Under the pieces are notes generated by a model that was given only the letters and a program-made list of their open reading frames with translations, made no database searches and had not been told where the DNA came from. Below, one piece after another: positions 1 to 17,658 of a stretch of 48,106 bases of DNA (the first letter of the stretch is position 1; every line of letters starts with the position of its first letter). Position numbers and translations under genes: made by a program. Source of the stretch: Prosthecobacter sp. (lineage in GTDB: Bacteria; Verrucomicrobiota; Verrucomicrobiia; Verrucomicrobiales; Verrucomicrobiaceae); assembly GCF_014879935.1 (NCBI RefSeq), contig NZ_JACSRD010000086.1, forward strand, positions 1 through 48,106. The letters are read 5' to 3'.

Positions 1-1208
1 TGTCATCAACCGCCCCCGAAACCTCTCCCAAACCCGTCGTCCCCGCGGATTTGGAGATCAAAGACGCCCAGCTCATCTTCAACCATGTCTGGAAGCAGCT
101 CGAAGCCGATTACGGTCGCGAAAAACTGCGCTTCCCGAAGGAGCTGATCCTGCTCGGTGGTGCGCCGGGCGCGGGCAAGGGCACGAACACGGACTTCATC
201 CGCAAAGTGCGCGGCATTGATGCGCAGCCCATCGTCGTCAGCGCCTTGCTCGACACACCGGAGGCCCGCGAGATCAAAGCACGCGGCGGCATGGTGGGAG
301 ATCGCGAGGTCGTGGGCATCCTCATGCGCAAGCTGCTCGAGCCCGAGCAGCAAAACGGCGCCATCCTCGACGGTTTCCCACGCACCAAGGTGCAGGTCGA
401 GTGCCTCAAGATGCTCTTCGACAAAATGGTGCGCCTGCGCCGCGACTTCCTCGACACACCGGACGCGGCGCACTTCAAGCAGCCCATCTTCCACATCATG
501 GTGCTCTTTGTCGATGAGGCCGAAAGCATCGCCCGGCAGCTCAAGCGCGGCCAGGAAGTGCTCGCCCACAACGCCGAGGTGCGCAGCTCCGGCCTCGGCG
601 AGCTTTGGGAAGAACGCGCCACCGACTTCGATCCCGCACTCGCTCGCAATCGCTACAAAGTCTTCAAAGAGAAGACCTACGACGCGCTCGTCTCGCTGAA
701 GGAGATCTTCCACTACCACTTCATCAATGCGCAGGTGCCGCTCGAGGTGGTGCAGGAAAACATCATCAAGGAGCTCGAATACCAAAGCTCCCTCGAGCTC
801 GATCCGCGCACCTTCGACCTCCTGCGCAAGCTCCCGCTCGCCAGCGAGATCATCCGCCACGCGCGGCAAGACCTCGTGCGCCGCCTCGATGCCTACAAGG
901 TCGAAAAACCCGAGCTCATGCAGGACGTCGTTAGCTTCATTGAGAAAAAGATGATGCCCATCATCGTCCGCCACGCCATCTCCGGCCGCGCCGACATCAA
1001 CACCGAGGACAAGCTCTTCCACGACCCCGAAGCCCTCGCCATCCTCATCGACATCTTCTCCGAACGCGGCTTCCACGCCAAGACCGATCTCCACGTCATC
1101 GAGATCCCCGACCGCTTCGACCTTCAAACCGGCAAGATCGAGTGCCGGAAGAAAAAAGTCTTCCGCATCGCCGTGCAGTTCAAAGGCTCGGAGATTCGCC
1201 GTGGCTGA
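1..1208 (+). CDS. adenylate kinase-like nucleoside monophosphate kinase with long C-terminal extension (first base of start codon missing)
   Basis: Probable P-loop nucleotide kinase of the adenylate kinase fold, transferring a phosphate between nucleotides. The sequence shows a Walker A loop GGAPGAGKGT about 50 residues in and the adenylate kinase signature DGFPRT about 70 residues later. The window opens with TG-TCA-TCA in this frame, so the true start is probably an ATG whose A lies one base outside; an internal TTG at 51 is less likely. With about 400 residues it is nearly twice the length of a normal Adk (around 215). The second half, from roughly residue 220, is Arg/Glu-rich and matches no domain I recognise. 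The stop overlaps the start of the next gene. A dedicated adk is normally found elsewhere with ribosomal genes, so this is probably a paralogue; its substrate is unknown. Confidence 0.8.
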   Translation, partial: SSTAPETSPKPVVPADLEIKDAQLIFNHVWKQLEADYGREKLRFPKELILLGGAPGAGKGTNTDFIRKVRGIDAQPIVVSALLDTPEAREIKARGGMVGDREVVGILMRKLLEPEQQNGAILDGFPRTKVQVECLKMLFDKMVRLRRDFLDTPDAAHFKQPIFHIMVLFVDEAESIARQLKRGQEVLAHNAEVRSSGLGELWEERATDFDPALARNRYKVFKEKTYDALVSLKEIFHYHFINAQVPLEVVQENIIKELEYQSSLELDPRTFDLLRKLPLASEIIRHARQDLVRRLDAYKVEKPELMQDVVSFIEKKMMPIIVRHAISGRADINTEDKLFHDPEALAILIDIFSERGFHAKTDLHVIEIPDRFDLQTGKIECRKKKVFRIAVQFKGSEIRRG

Positions 1209-1908
1209 TGAGCAAGGAGAGGCTTGTCATTTGCCTCGCGAGTCATACGTTCGCCCCATCATGGTCGCCCTAGCTTCCAAATCCGTGAAAACCGCCCGGC
1301 GCAGTGCTTCGCCGAGGTCGCGCCAGACTGGTGTCGCGCAGCAGGAGTCGCGTCCCATCCCGCCGCCGCAGCCCTTTCGCTTCACGGTGAAGGATTACTA
1401 CCGCCTCGGCGAGATCGGCATCCTCAAGGAAGACGACCGCGTGGAGCTCATCCAAGGAGAAATCATCATGATGCCGCCCATTGATCCAGGACACGCCGAA
1501 AGCACGGACAACACTCAACAAAAAATACAGAAGAAGCTCGGCTCAGAGTTTCGTGTCCGCTGCCAACACCCCGTGCGCTTGGATAGCCGAAGCGAGCCGA
1601 TGCCAGACCTGGCGGTTGTGCGCCAGAAATCCTACAAGGACTGTCATCCAAGCGCGGATGACACCCTGCTCATCATTGAGGTCTCCAATTCCTCCTTGCG
1701 AGAGGATCTCGGTCGCAAGAAGCACCTCTATGCCGCCGCGGGCATTCCGGAATACTGGGTGGTCGATTTGAATGCGCGAGTGCTGCATGTCTTTGCCCGT
1801 CCGAAAGGTGGTGACTACCTCGATCATCGCATTCACGAGGAAAAAGAGACCGTTCAAAGTGCTACGCTGAAGCCGCTGAAGCTGAAGGTGTCGGAGCTCC
1901 TGCCTTGA
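1201..1908 (+). CDS. Uma2 family endonuclease (DUF820)
   Basis: Member of the Uma2/DUF820 family, PD-(D/E)XK-fold putative restriction-type endonucleases that are abundant in cyanobacteria, planctomycetes and verrucomicrobia; their biological role is mostly unknown. After an N-terminal basic stretch of about 55 residues come the typical FTVKDYYRLGEIGILKEDD opening, the VELIQGEI strand, MPDLAVV (the catalytic Asp), LIIEVSNSS (the catalytic Glu) and the Lys-containing GRKKHLYAAAGIPEYWVVD motif. All expected catalytic positions are present, so it looks intact. The GTG start at 1201 is preceded by GGAG at 1190-1193 with 7-nt spacing and overlaps the upstream gene by 8 bp; an ATG at 1261 is the alternative and lacks a ribosome site. 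The stop overlaps the tgt start (TGATG), so the three genes appear translationally coupled. Confidence 0.88.
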   Translation: MADEQGEACHLPRESYVRPIMVALASKSVKTARRSASPRSRQTGVAQQESRPIPPPQPFRFTVKDYYRLGEIGILKEDDRVELIQGEIIMMPPIDPGHAESTDNTQQKIQKKLGSEFRVRCQHPVRLDSRSEPMPDLAVVRQKSYKDCHPSADDTLLIIEVSNSSLREDLGRKKHLYAAAGIPEYWVVDLNARVLHVFARPKGGDYLDHRIHEEKETVQSATLKPLKLKVSELLP

Positions 1909-3590
1909 TGCCTCCCTCCCGTCTCGATTTCCAGCTTCAAGCGCGTGCCAGCGGCTCGCGGGCACGGGCGGCGACGTTTCGGACGTTGCATGGGGTGATT
2001 CAGACGCCGCTGTTCATGCCGGTGGGCACCCAGGCGACGGTGAAGGCGCAGACGCCGGAGTCGCTGGCGGCATCGGGATCGCAGATTTTGCTGGCGAACA
2101 CCTACCACCTGCTGCTGCGGCCGGGGCCGGAGGTGTTTGAGAAGATGGGTGGAATTCATCGCTTCATGAAATGGCCCGGCTCGGTGCTCACGGACTCGGG
2201 TGGCTACCAAATTTTCTCGCTGCCGCATTCGCGGTCGATGACGGAGAAAGGCGCGGTGTTTCAAAGTTATGTCGATAACCGCCGCATCCTGCTGAGCCCG
2301 GAGCTGAGCATTCAAACGCAGCGCAGCATCGGCAGCGACATCATGATGGTGCTCGACCAGTGCATTCCGAGCACGGCGGATGAAAAGACGGCGCGGAAGG
2401 CCCTGCAGGTCACGCAACGCTGGGCCGCCCGCAGTCTCGCGGCACGAGAGGACTCGCCGCAGTCGCTTTTCGCCATCGTGCAGGGCGCGTTGTATCCGCA
2501 TTTACGGAAGGAGAGCGCCGCCGGGCTGGTCCCGATGCCATTTGATGGCTTCGCCATTGGTGGACTGGCCGTGGGTGAGGAAAAACATCAGCGCGAGGAC
2601 GTGTGCGAGCTCACCGCCGCGATGCTGCCGGAGGATCGGCCGCGTTATCTGATGGGCGTGGGCATGCCAATCGACCTGCTTGAGGCTGTGCATCGCGGGA
2701 TGGACATGTTTGACTGCATCATCCCCACACAGGTGGCGAAACGCGGCACGGCCTTCACCTCACGCGGCATCGTCGAGTTGCGGCGCAGCGTGTATAAATT
2801 CGCCGATGCGCCGCTGGATGCCGCCTGCACCTGCCCGGTGTGCGCCACGCACTCACGGGCCTATTTGCATCATCTCACGAAGACGCAGGAGACGCTCGGC
2901 TGGACGCTCATCGGCCAGCACAACATCCACTTCTACCACCAGCTCATGCGCGAGATCCGTGCGAGCATTCTTGAGGACCGCTTCCTGCCGCTCTACCACG
3001 AGAAGCGGGCGATCCTGGCCGAAGAGGATCTCGATCATCCGGTGAAGCCGCCGAAACGCGGTCAAAGCTCCACGGTGAGTGAAATTGGCCGTTACGAATT
3101 GCATGGTTCGTCGATCCGATTGATCGACTCCGGTGAGATCATTCCGACTGCGATTCAGGACAGCCTGCCGGAGCTGGCAAAACTGATTCACGAGAAGACC
3201 CAGGAGCCGCTCATTGTCTGGGATGTCGGTCTTGGTGCAGGCGCAGCCGCTATCTCCGCCATTCTAGGGTATGAAGCCGCAGTGCAGAAGCAGCCGGTAC
3301 GGCCGATGCATCTCATCAGCATCACGGACGACCTTGACGCTCTCAGACTGGCGCTCAGCCACAAGAAAATCTTCTCCTGGCTGCGTCACGGAGCCGCGGA
3401 CACGCTGCTGCATCGTGGCGAGTGGACATCGCGATTCTGCAAAGGTTTGAGCTGGTCGCTCGCAAAGAAGGATGAGCGGCCAAAGCCGGAATTGATCCTC
3501 CACACGCCTATTCCTGGACAGGAACACGACCTGACCGGCCATGTCTGTCCTGTGATTGACCTGCTTGCGCCACCGCCAGGCCCCCGCTAG
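1908..3590 (+). CDS. tgt: queuine tRNA-ribosyltransferase with C-terminal MnmC-like methyltransferase domain
   Basis: The N-terminal 375 or so residues are a complete bacterial tRNA-guanine transglycosylase, which replaces G34 with preQ1 in GUN anticodons. Visible motifs are VLTDSGGYQIFSL (active-site Asp), VQGALYPHLR, IGGLAVGE, MFDCIIPTQVAKRGTAFT (nucleophile Asp region) and the zinc site CTCPVC followed by a distant His. Normal Tgt ends at about 375-380 residues; this one continues for about 185 more. The extension resembles the methyltransferase half of MnmC (WDVGLGAGAAA as motif I, then HLISITDD), another wobble-base modifier, but I do not find the usual DPFSP-type catalytic motif and it ends in a Pro-rich tail, so the domain may be truncated or decayed. 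ATG 1908 overlaps the Uma2 stop. Confidence 0.93.
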   Translation: MPPSRLDFQLQARASGSRARAATFRTLHGVIQTPLFMPVGTQATVKAQTPESLAASGSQILLANTYHLLLRPGPEVFEKMGGIHRFMKWPGSVLTDSGGYQIFSLPHSRSMTEKGAVFQSYVDNRRILLSPELSIQTQRSIGSDIMMVLDQCIPSTADEKTARKALQVTQRWAARSLAAREDSPQSLFAIVQGALYPHLRKESAAGLVPMPFDGFAIGGLAVGEEKHQREDVCELTAAMLPEDRPRYLMGVGMPIDLLEAVHRGMDMFDCIIPTQVAKRGTAFTSRGIVELRRSVYKFADAPLDAACTCPVCATHSRAYLHHLTKTQETLGWTLIGQHNIHFYHQLMREIRASILEDRFLPLYHEKRAILAEEDLDHPVKPPKRGQSSTVSEIGRYELHGSSIRLIDSGEIIPTAIQDSLPELAKLIHEKTQEPLIVWDVGLGAGAAAISAILGYEAAVQKQPVRPMHLISITDDLDALRLALSHKKIFSWLRHGAADTLLHRGEWTSRFCKGLSWSLAKKDERPKPELILHTPIPGQEHDLTGHVCPVIDLLAPPPGPR

Positions 3591-14979: not shown

Positions 14980-16422
<1,443 letters not shown>

Positions 16423-16432
16423 AGCAACTGGA

Positions 16433-16453
16433 GCGCGGGCCTCCGAGCCCGCA
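16433..16453. repeat. REP-like hairpin related to the palindrome at 6269
   Basis: GCGGGC, loop CTCCGA, GCCCGC forms a stem 13 bp after the oxidoreductase stop. It shares the flanks AGCGCGG and the TCCGA loop with the arms of the REPIN-like element, while stem bases AA/TT are replaced by GC/GC, so pairing is kept. Confidence 0.6.
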
Positions 16454-16600
16454 GCACTCCGCCAAGAGCTTTCGCTCCACTTTTGCAATCGCCTCCACCA
16501 CACCGCCGACCCCGTGCTTTCAGTGGCGCAGACCACATCCATTCACGTCTTCCACTGACGATCCACTGCGGACTCGGAGGTCAGCGCTTGTCTCTACATT

Positions 16601-16775
16601 GGGTCCTTCCCTGATAAGATGGAGCCACCGCGACAGCGGTGGCCTTCAAGCAGGGAGGCCTGGAAGGAAGCATTGACAGACCGCGACCGCGCTGGTGCCC
16701 GTAGGGCACGCAGGAGATAGGCGTCCATGCTTCACGAAGGGCTGACGTGAAGCCGAACCGAATCCGCAGCCCTGG
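16601..16775. ncRNA. candidate structured RNA with H-type pseudoknot (strand uncertain)
   Basis: The 418-bp gap 16423-16840 has no convincing gene. Within it I see TCCTTCC (16604-16610) pairing with GGAAGGA (16662-16668); CCCTG (16609-16613) with CAGGG (16651-16655), which shares two bases with the former; an 8-bp hairpin GCCACCGC-GACA-GCGGTGGC (16624-16643); a 6-bp hairpin GTGCCC-GTA-GGGCAC (16695-16709); and GCTTCAC (16729-16735) with GTGAAGC (16747-16753), whose loop contains AGGGCTG (16738-16744) able to pair with CAGCCCT (16767-16773). The last two 7-bp helices form a compact pseudoknot with connecting loops of 2, 2 and 13 nt. No known RNA class is recognised. Confidence 0.35.
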
Positions 16776-16808
16776 TGATCCTCTGGCAGCAGTGTTGGCT
16801 CACTCCTT

Positions 16809-16826
16809 GGAAGACCGGCATCTTCC
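16809..16826 (-). terminator. stem-loop downstream of the C39-like peptidase gene
   Basis: GGAAGA, 6-nt loop, TCTTCC, 14 bp beyond the stop of the minus-strand peptidase gene. No T-tract follows, so this is a weak candidate. Confidence 0.35.
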
Positions 16827-16840
16827 GCCATGAAATCTAC

Positions 16841-17458
16841 TCACTTCACCTTCTTGATCACCCGTACCGCGTAGATCTTCGCCGTCAGTTCGCTGAGCTT
16901 CACCGGTTTCGTGTCATCACGCAGCGGATCACGCGCGAGGTATTCATGGCCTTCCTTGCCGACAATCACGCACCAGTGCTGGATGCCGCCGATGAGGAAA
17001 TACTTCACGACGGGATACGCGCCGCGTTCCAGGGCGTCGTCCAGGAGCGAATGCTTCGTGACTGGGTGGTATTCGGCCGTCAGGCAGTGATCGGTCACTT
17101 TAGGGATGGCGTTCCAGACCACCCAGCCTTGGGGCAGAAAGCCGTCGGCCTTCTTCAAACGTTCATTCAGTTCCTTCGGCGTCAGTTTGACACCGAGATC
17201 CGAGCAGGCCATCGCCACACTCGTCACGAGGCAGCCGTGACTGCCCAAGGTGCAGTCGGATGGGCCGAGTTGGTCGTTCGCCCAGCGTTTGTCCTTCTGC
17301 AGCAGCGTCTTGCCGCTGTCAGGGAGGCGAATATGCAACTCACGTCCACCTTTCGAGGCAATCGCGGGCGCGAGACGTGCCCAGCAGGTCCGCAGCAACA
17401 CACAACTGGTCGCGGTGGTCACCAGTGCGATCAAACCGATGACCGGCCAGCGGCGCAT
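16841..17458 (-). CDS. membrane-anchored or secreted C39-like cysteine peptidase
   Basis: A 205-residue protein with an N-terminal hydrophobic segment (RRWPVIGLIALVTTATSCVLL) and a papain-like peptidase_C39_2 domain: LLQKDKRWANDQLG (oxyanion Gln), HGCLVTSVAMA (catalytic Cys about residue 76), LTPKELNERLKKADGFL, and GGIQHWCVIVGKEG followed by YLARDP (probable catalytic His and Asp). The triad appears intact. Such proteins cleave peptides outside the cytoplasm; the substrate is unknown. The start could be TTG 17470, overlapping the upstream gene's TGA, or ATG 17458; I prefer the ATG, with AAGGAG about 14 nt upstream inside the preceding gene. It forms an operon with the His-rich lipoprotein. 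Confidence 0.78.
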   Translation of the reverse strand: MRRWPVIGLIALVTTATSCVLLRTCWARLAPAIASKGGRELHIRLPDSGKTLLQKDKRWANDQLGPSDCTLGSHGCLVTSVAMACSDLGVKLTPKELNERLKKADGFLPQGWVVWNAIPKVTDHCLTAEYHPVTKHSLLDDALERGAYPVVKYFLIGGIQHWCVIVGKEGHEYLARDPLRDDTKPVKLSELTAKIYAVRVIKKVK

Positions 17459-17466
17459 GCGCAGGA

Positions 17467-17658
17467 TCAATGCTCCTTTTTCGCCTCGTGCTTCTCCTCT
17501 TTCGCGTGAGGATCGGCATGGGAGTCGCCATGACCTTCACCGTGGGCCTTGTGCATGCCTTCATGCAACACCTTGGTTTCCTCGAAAGAGTGCTTGTCAC
17601 AGGAAACGGAGGCGAGGATGAAGGCGGCGGCGCAGAGAAAAATCGGAGCGGTTTTCAT
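17467..17658 (-). CDS. small His-rich putative lipoprotein
   Basis: A 63-residue protein starting with a lipoprotein-like signal (KTAPIFLCAAAFILASVSC); the Cys at residue 20 could be lipidated although the lipobox (S-V-S-C) is not canonical. The mature part is rich in His, Lys and Glu (HEGMHKAHGEGHGDSHADPH), which suggests metal binding. I know no family for it. It directly precedes, and nearly overlaps, the C39-like peptidase gene, so a joint envelope function is likely. ATG 17658 is the only start that gives a signal peptide. Confidence 0.68.
   Translation of the reverse strand: MKTAPIFLCAAAFILASVSCDKHSFEETKVLHEGMHKAHGEGHGDSHADPHAKEEKHEAKKEH

What the first reader, a model, noticed from the sequence alone, without database searches (positions are those of the whole stretch)
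16601..16775. Possible unknown structured RNA with a compact pseudoknot
In a gene-free gap several perfect helices fit together: 7-bp and 5-bp outer pairings, hairpins of 8 and 6 bp, and two interlocking 7-bp helices (16729-16735/16747-16753 and 16738-16744/16767-16773) forming an H-type pseudoknot with loops of 2, 2 and 13 nt. Such density is unusual for random intergenic DNA and fits no RNA class I recognise.
Basis: partly seen in the sequence, partly recalled or inferred. Interest (0 to 1): 0.6.

Follow-up and report, generated by a model that had tools for sequence, protein, structure and literature searches.

The report
Fossil guide-RNA end of jumping gene
The folded stretch is the left-over guide-RNA end of an IS110-type jumping gene that had landed in a repeated palindrome and then lost its enzyme gene; the RNA fold is real but of a known kind, and this copy is probably dead.

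Summary
The located helices exist and exceed chance, but the RNA class is known. Window 16587-16792 (+) is the 5' noncoding end (LE) of an IS110-group insertion sequence: most of its bridge RNA (bRNA/seekRNA). It is ~70% identical to the sequence upstream of the one intact recombinase of this subgroup found in the same genome (C35). A covariance model built from four copies finds 12 in 6 of 386 genomes of the order. The target-loop stem and two hairpins covary. In relatives the guides can be read: the left target guide fits the own left flank in ten copies at 8-10 of 10 letters, and for six representatives the true assignment beats the 719 others. The window copy starts exactly where the core CT interrupts a ~161-bp REP-pair palindrome (16430-16588); its guides spell that palindrome's end (CCGCG-CT-CC). 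Recombinase gene, right end, right donor guide and the 3' half of the donor-loop stem were not found, so this is a truncated, almost certainly inactive relic. The proposed H-type pseudoknot is not conserved: one helix excludes the covarying target-loop stem. Verdict: a real structured RNA, an ordinary decayed member of a known kind. No Rfam 15 family matched seven related loci.

The parts
16430..16588 (.). REP-pair (REPIN-like) palindromic repeat that served as insertion target; terminal REPs 16430-16452 (+) and 16566-16588 (-), the latter cut at the core CT
   Evidence: Inverted arms 16432-16454/16566-16588, 87% complementary; 39 REP matches in the genome at 2 mismatches or fewer, 0 for the control pattern; six other pairs among the exact matches span 152-164 bp, against 161 expected here. 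Unpaired REPs occur too.
16587..16588 (+). core dinucleotide CT: left junction of the IS110 element
   Evidence: Repeat reads GGTCCGCG-CT-CC elsewhere; window reads GGTCAGCG-CT-TGTCTC. CTTGTCTCT starts the block in 10 homologous copies.
16587..16792 (+). remnant of IS110 left end carrying most of a bridge RNA
   Evidence: 70% identity over 212 aligned columns (16586-16791) to the LE of the C35 element, E 5e-13; covariance-model hit 16662-16792, 122.7 bits with R1 and 99 bits with R2, both built with this copy among others.
16604..16668 (+). 5' stem-loop of the bRNA; covarying 8-bp hairpin 16624-16631/16636-16643
   Evidence: 98.8% of cells paired over 10 sequences; 2 of 8 pairs with two-sided changes (UA/CG/GC and AU/GC/GU), 5 never vary. 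The outer helix was not tested.
16667..16733 (+). target-binding loop: stem 16667-16677/16723-16733, apical hairpin 16695-16700/16704-16709
   Evidence: Stem 92.4% of cells paired, 11 of 12 pairs with changes on both sides; hairpin 90.9%, 3 of 5.
16684..16693 (+). left target guide (CGACCGCGCT)
   Evidence: 7 of 10 identical to own left flank plus core, 8 of 10 to the repeat sequence; ten homologous copies 8-10 of 10 to their own flanks.
16713..16716 (+). right target guide (GGAG, complement of CTCC)
   Evidence: By eye: predicts CT-CC, the end of the REP; the three homologues whose right end is visible (C35, G194, G069 C46) have guide GUAG and sequence CTAC there.
16738..16744 (+). 5' half of the donor-loop stem (partner missing)
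   Evidence: 9 of 10 homologous copies have a 5-7 bp partner 3' of AGACAAG at the matching place; the window has none there.
16756..16764 (+). left donor guide (AACCGAATC) beside the conserved AAGCCG motif
   Evidence: Homologues: ACCATATC, ACTCTATC and ACCTTATC each recur at their own right end, ending in the C of CT (by eye); the window's predicted right end, ACCGAATCT, does not occur on the window's plus strand.
16793..16840 (+). flank without clear homology up to the neighbouring gene; right donor guide AGACAAG and recombinase start are missing
   Evidence: Local homology ends at 16791, alignments are loose beyond 16792; no recombinase piece in the window, best tblastn E 0.21 and elsewhere.

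Best explanation
A relic of an IS110-group insertion sequence. Shown by sequence: the LE of an element whose bridge RNA guides read CCGCG-CT-CC begins at the terminal CT of a REP-pair palindrome; most of the bridge RNA gene survives, while the recombinase gene, the right donor guide, the 3' half of the donor-loop stem and a recognisable right end are missing. Inferred from work on IS621 and ISEc21: when alive, the circular form transcribed this RNA from a promoter formed across the joined ends, the DEDD recombinase bound it, the first loop paired with the palindrome and the second with the element's own ends, and strands were exchanged at CT. Inferred: a deletion removed the rest, and today the RNA has no function.
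For: Homology to the LE of an intact IS110 element in the same genome (recombinase domains PF01548 and PF02371) and to the LE of related elements. Covariation of the target-loop stem and hairpins with shuffle and slide controls. Left guide against own flank for six representatives: true assignment best of 720, 42 of 48 non-core matches; without the window 37 of 40, best of 120. LE begins exactly at the CT of a genome-wide REP-pair repeat. No recombinase at the locus, no right donor guide and no stem partner. Guide logic, core CT, LE position and REP targets agree with Durrant et al. 2024, PMC11208160 (sections 5, 7 and 12 read).
Against: The surviving target loop is well kept (10 of 11 stem pairs, one U-C mismatch), which could mean continued use rather than recent decay. 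The window's own flank matches its guide at only 7 of 10 positions. In the three G069 copies the guide reads CG, not CT, at the core; in G194 and in the distant L022 I saw no left-guide match by eye. The right boundaries of C35, G194 and G069 C46 were placed by guide match, and all three read ATCTAC there, so they are not an independent test of the right target guide. The window's right junction was not found, and no relative with an empty site was found: in the loci fetched neither neighbouring gene keeps its partner.
Confidence: 0.93

Rival explanations
1. Non-autonomous element or trans-acting bridge RNA: the solo copy is still transcribed and served by the C35 recombinase, or titrates it.
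For: An intact recombinase of the same subgroup exists in the genome; bridge and seek RNAs work in trans in published assays (PMC11208160 and PMC11187229, passages); the target loop is nearly intact.
Against: No right donor guide, no closed donor-loop stem, no recognisable right end; no second copy of this version found in the genome; guides differ from those of C35; no sigma-70-like site in 16400-16900 (consensus scan only).
Confidence: 0.04
2. An independent cis-regulatory or small RNA of unknown class with an H-type pseudoknot.
For: Helix density above chance; an interlocked 7+7 bp pair in 1 of 2000 shuffles. The pseudoknot's covariation score exceeds 500 of 500 shuffles on A8 and 498 of 500 on A10.
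Against: Its helices pair in only 54-58% of cells; pairs with two-sided changes are as in shuffles on A8 (3 of 14 versus mean 3.3), and on A10 a slide of -3 scores higher. One helix clashes with the covarying stem. The four other places with enough flank (C35, G001, G194, G069 C46) all lie before an IS110 recombinase gene, one of them with an internal deletion.
Confidence: 0.02
3. A host RNA beside which IS110 elements happened to insert.
For: The block lies outside the recombinase reading frame.
Against: Copies share the block from CTTGTCTCT onward while the sequence upstream of it mostly differs (G001 and one G085 copy have like flanks), and loop letters change in step with those flanks.
Confidence: 0.01

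Closest known systems
Bridge RNA of IS621 / IS110 group (Durrant et al. 2024, PMC11208160)
   Same: In the LE upstream of a DEDD recombinase; a target loop and a donor loop each with left and right guides that include core CT; REP target. (The order 5' stem-loop, target loop, donor loop is as I recall it for IS621.)
   Different: No Rfam 15 model reaches its gathering score on the seven related loci tested. The window copy lacks the recombinase, right donor guide, donor-stem 3' half and a recognisable right end.
seekRNA of ISEc21 / IS1111 and IS110 types (PMC11187229)
   Same: Noncoding region upstream of the IS110-type transposase, needed in cis or in trans for transposition.
   Different: Only the start of the abstract and passages were seen; no sequence comparison made.
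IS110 element at G000:C35:21642-22634 (same genome)
   Same: About 70% nucleotide identity in the LE, same target-loop helices and motifs.
   Different: Different guides; intact recombinase; at this divergence not a recent copy.
IS elements targeting REP sequences (PMC1525189, search listing with start of abstract only)
   Same: Insertion into bacterial REP palindromes.
   Different: Nothing further compared.

Membership tests
IS110-group bridge RNA | encoded in the LE upstream of a PF01548/PF02371 recombinase | tested here: met
   Met for the homologues: C35 with both Pfam domains, G001 and G194 by similarity to its protein. At the window locus itself the recombinase is absent.
IS110-group bridge RNA | target-binding loop: stem, two guides, apical hairpin | tested here: met
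   11 of 12 stem pairs with two-sided changes; the window has 10 of 11 pairs of 16667-16677/16723-16733.
IS110-group bridge RNA | target guides match flanks including the core CT | tested here: met
   Left guide: best of 720 assignments, window 7 of 10 to flank and 8 of 10 to the repeat; right guide predicts CTCC (by eye). Exceptions: core letter differs in three G069 copies; no match seen in G194 and L022.
IS110-group bridge RNA | closed donor-binding loop with left and right donor guides | tested here: not met
   Right guide and stem partner missing in the window; present in 10 and 9 of 10 homologous copies respectively. Hence a truncated member by descent, not a complete bRNA.
IS110-group bridge RNA | transcribed and bound by the recombinase | not testable with these tools
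   No RNA data.
Any Rfam 15 family | reaches a curated score | tested here: not met
   window at gathering scores: only three tRNAs, elsewhere; 16420-16860, nothing up to E 10; seven related loci, nothing at gathering scores.
H-type pseudoknot RNA of a new class | both helices conserved with covariation | tested here: not met
   54-58% of cells paired. A8: 3 of 14 pairs with two-sided changes, as in shuffles, though the covariation score exceeds all 500. A10: 4 of 14, score reached by 2 of 500 shuffles, but a slide of -3 scores higher and +3 equals it. The two-sided changes lie mainly in helix 2.

The most novel reading that the evidence does not exclude
A solo bridge RNA with a nearly intact target loop for the genome's own REP-pair repeat is still made and is used in trans by, or held against, the resident C35 IS110 recombinase.
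Probability: 0.04. Interest if true: 0.55.

Novelty: new member of a known kind. Interest (0 to 1): 0.25.

Why it matters
It settles an 'unknown structured RNA' as a fossil bridge RNA, shows that such relics can be recognised by guide-target matching after the enzyme gene is gone, and gives a small, guide-annotated bridge RNA subfamily on which no Rfam 15 model scored in the loci tested.

Tried and rejected
Known Rfam classes: none. Plasmid records: four records, short weak matches only. Public genome contigs by the C35 recombinase: two distant loci, L014 and L015, which entered only the recombinase comparison and, for L014, one reading of the upstream sequence and one model scan (no hit). Weak DNA hits in other genomes: L048 lies in what I read by eye, from memory, as a release-factor gene; L049 scored 14.3 bits, E 0.11, and was left open. 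Empty-site search: of 27 other loci around relatives of the gene at 16841-17470, 8 show the upstream neighbour and none the oxidoreductase gene; of 29 other loci around oxidoreductase relatives none shows the gene at 16841-17470 or its upstream neighbour. Loci reach 1.5 kb to each side, some are cut by contig ends, and of 43 genomes with an oxidoreductase match only 30 gave a locus, the window's own among them. Right junction: CTCC at 16803-16806 could be the second core plus flank, but no right-end sequence precedes it; not claimed. MAFFT alignment A5 with more distant IS110s was too poor to use. In A4 the G194 row is one column off in the stem, so model R1 understates it. In A10 three of ten sequences fail in several stem pairs, which I put down to a shift of the G069 rows; hence 80% there and 92% in A8, which is fitted to the model. 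G194 was left out of A10 and of the guide permutation because its LE start resembles the end of a neighbouring transposase element. The permutation used six representatives of the eleven copies tabulated. In one search the G194 protein was read in a wrong frame (14 stops), so the remnant search rests on C35, G001 and G029; the same file served. The model searches over many genomes scored only 8-10 candidates per genome with stricter filters, and the protein search up to 5, so weak copies may be missed. Weak R2 hits in G080 (E 0.044) and G617 (E 0.0013) showed no recombinase and are unproven.

Full report
Observation. The segment lies between two convergent genes, a GFO/IDH/MocA oxidoreductase ending at 16422 and a 209-codon frame on the other strand ending at 16841 with no Pfam hit. 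The density is unusual: in 16601-16775 five perfect helices of at least 7 bp against a shuffle mean of 0.46, none of 2000 shuffles reaching five; for helices of at least 6 bp the excess is milder (7 against 1.8; 0.4% of shuffles and 2% of 799 window pieces reach it). Fold z -2.69.

What it is. A DNA search of 19 genomes (own genome and 18 relatives) matched only the own genome, twice: the window itself and contig C35, 70% identical. Next to the C35 copy, on the same strand and about 90 nt beyond the matched block, starts an intact 332-aa protein with both IS110 domains. It is the only strong match to that protein in the genome; the other, on C217, is weak (25% identity, E 5e-4). The same block precedes the related recombinases of genomes G001 (49% protein identity) and G194 (40%). 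A covariance model built from these four copies (R1) found 12 places in 6 of 386 genomes of the order. Eight of the 12 were not in the model: two in G085, three in G020, three in G069. Of the 12 places, three have a recombinase downstream (C35, G001, G194), one has a recombinase with a large internal deletion (G069 C46), seven lie within about 210 nt of a contig end, in several of which the first codons of a recombinase can be read by eye, and one, the window, has none. R2, built from all 12, gave the same 12 places plus two weak hits (G189, G080) in 372 genomes of the order; in 318 genomes of the phylum three matched, own, G020 and, weakly, G617. The G189 hit reads by eye like a much decayed relic of the G020 type; no recombinase was found near it.

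Structure. On the model-fitted alignment A8 (12 rows, 11 distinct) the target-loop stem has two-sided changes at 11 of 12 pairs and 92.4% of cells paired, the apical hairpin 3 of 5 and 90.9%, the third hairpin 2 of 5 and 80%. The covariation score is 0.621 against 0.213 in shuffles (0 of 500 as high) and at most 0.160 for slid partners; the count of further pair types did not exceed shuffles, 208 of 500. On a plain MAFFT alignment (A10, 10 rows) the 8-bp hairpin at 16624-16643 and the stem together give 11 of 19 pairs with two-sided changes (0 of 500 shuffles), score 0.411 against 0.217 in shuffles and at most 0.241 when slid; further pair types again do not exceed shuffles, 485 of 500. On A8 the number of pairs with two-sided changes equals chance (3 against 3.3), though the score, 0.169, exceeds all shuffles; on A10 the score, 0.130, is reached by 2 of 500 shuffles, but a slide of -3 gives 0.202. 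The first pseudoknot helix uses 16729-16733, which belong to the covarying stem, so both cannot form. The 5' strand of the second is the 5' half of what in the relatives is the donor-loop stem: nine of ten homologous copies pair it, over 5-7 bp, with a segment beyond AGACAAG (G069 C46 does not at that place), and the window lacks that partner.

Guides. [quoted passage not shown] Here, ten letters after the ACCG motif match the last eight letters of the left flank plus core at 10, 10, 9, 10, 9, 9, 9, 8, 8, 8 of 10 positions in C35, G001, G085 (2), G020 (3) and G069 (3), and at 7 of 10 in the window. In the three G069 copies the last core letter differs. Two G069 copies with different flanks have correspondingly different guides. 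With six representatives, one per guide type and the window, the true assignment beats the other 719. I saw no such match in G194, whose LE start seems replaced, nor in the distant L022. By eye: the right target guide reads GUAG in C35, G194 and G069 C46, whose right ends read CTAC, but these boundaries were themselves placed by guide match. The left donor guides ACCATATC, ACTCTATC and ACCTTATC recur at their own right ends, ending in the C of CT. AGACAAG is complementary to the LE start CTTGTCT in ten copies, and in the more distant G029 the pair is GCTAACAAG / CTTGTTAGC.

Insertion site. Position 16430-16452 and, inverted, 16566-16588 are the two ends of a REP-pair repeat. The pattern occurs 39 times in the genome at up to two mismatches and 0 times as the reversed control. 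Six other pairs among the exact matches span 152-164 bp; other REPs stand alone. In the window the second palindrome runs ...GCGGACTCGGAGGTCAGCG-CT and then turns into LE sequence where the repeat has CC; completing it would give 161 bp. The window's guides read CCGCG-CT-CC, the end of this repeat. IS110 elements are known to insert in REP sequences (PMC11208160, section 5; PMC1525189, search listing).

Why a relic. Local homology stops at 16791-16792 (loose alignment beyond). The right donor guide and donor-stem partner are missing, the predicted right end ACCGAATCT does not occur on the window's plus strand, and no recombinase piece is found in the window with the C35, G001 and G029 proteins (best E 0.21, elsewhere). 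Shown: homology, covariation, guide-flank matching, insertion point, truncation. Inferred: the past mechanism (from IS621 and ISEc21) and the present lack of function; no transcript data exist here. The reading of IS621's life cycle comes from sections 5, 7 and 12 of PMC11208160 and passages; PMC11187229 was seen as start of abstract and passages only. The papers listed by my searches did not show, in title or start of abstract, one on solo bridge RNA relics of this group; most were not opened, and that is no proof of absence.

Verdict. Observation confirmed; class known; this copy truncated. Interest 0.25: tidy, instructive, not surprising.

Noticed in passing
window 16430-16588; own genome C7, C55, C213 and others: A family of REP-pair (REPIN-like) repeats of about 160 bp, ends GGAGCGCGG[GA]CCTCCGAG[CT]CCGC, 39 REP matches in the genome at up to two mismatches.
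   Followed up: partly
L064 (G069:C46) 1003-1397, minus strand: IS110 copy with complete bridge RNA but a recombinase lacking roughly 190 internal residues; a possible non-autonomous derivative.
   Followed up: no
L161 (G189:C878:3119-3248, minus strand): Much decayed piece resembling the G020-type bridge RNA (GTCTGTCCCATGCCCGGCCGTGAAGCC), no recombinase found nearby.
   Followed up: partly
L062 545-631 (minus) and 1468 on (plus): The start of the G194 LE copy shares TTTGTCCACCTTGCCTAG with the end of a neighbouring transposase-like element (that gene was not scanned), so its LE start seems replaced.
   Followed up: no
L020, L022, L024-L026 upstream of the recombinases: More distant IS110s of the order show a similar stem-plus-loop layout with other motifs (e.g. 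AAGTCCGAGCAGCATC).
   Followed up: no
window 1943-2032: ARAGORN calls a tRNA-Arg (tcg) that Rfam's tRNA model does not list at its gathering score.
   Followed up: no
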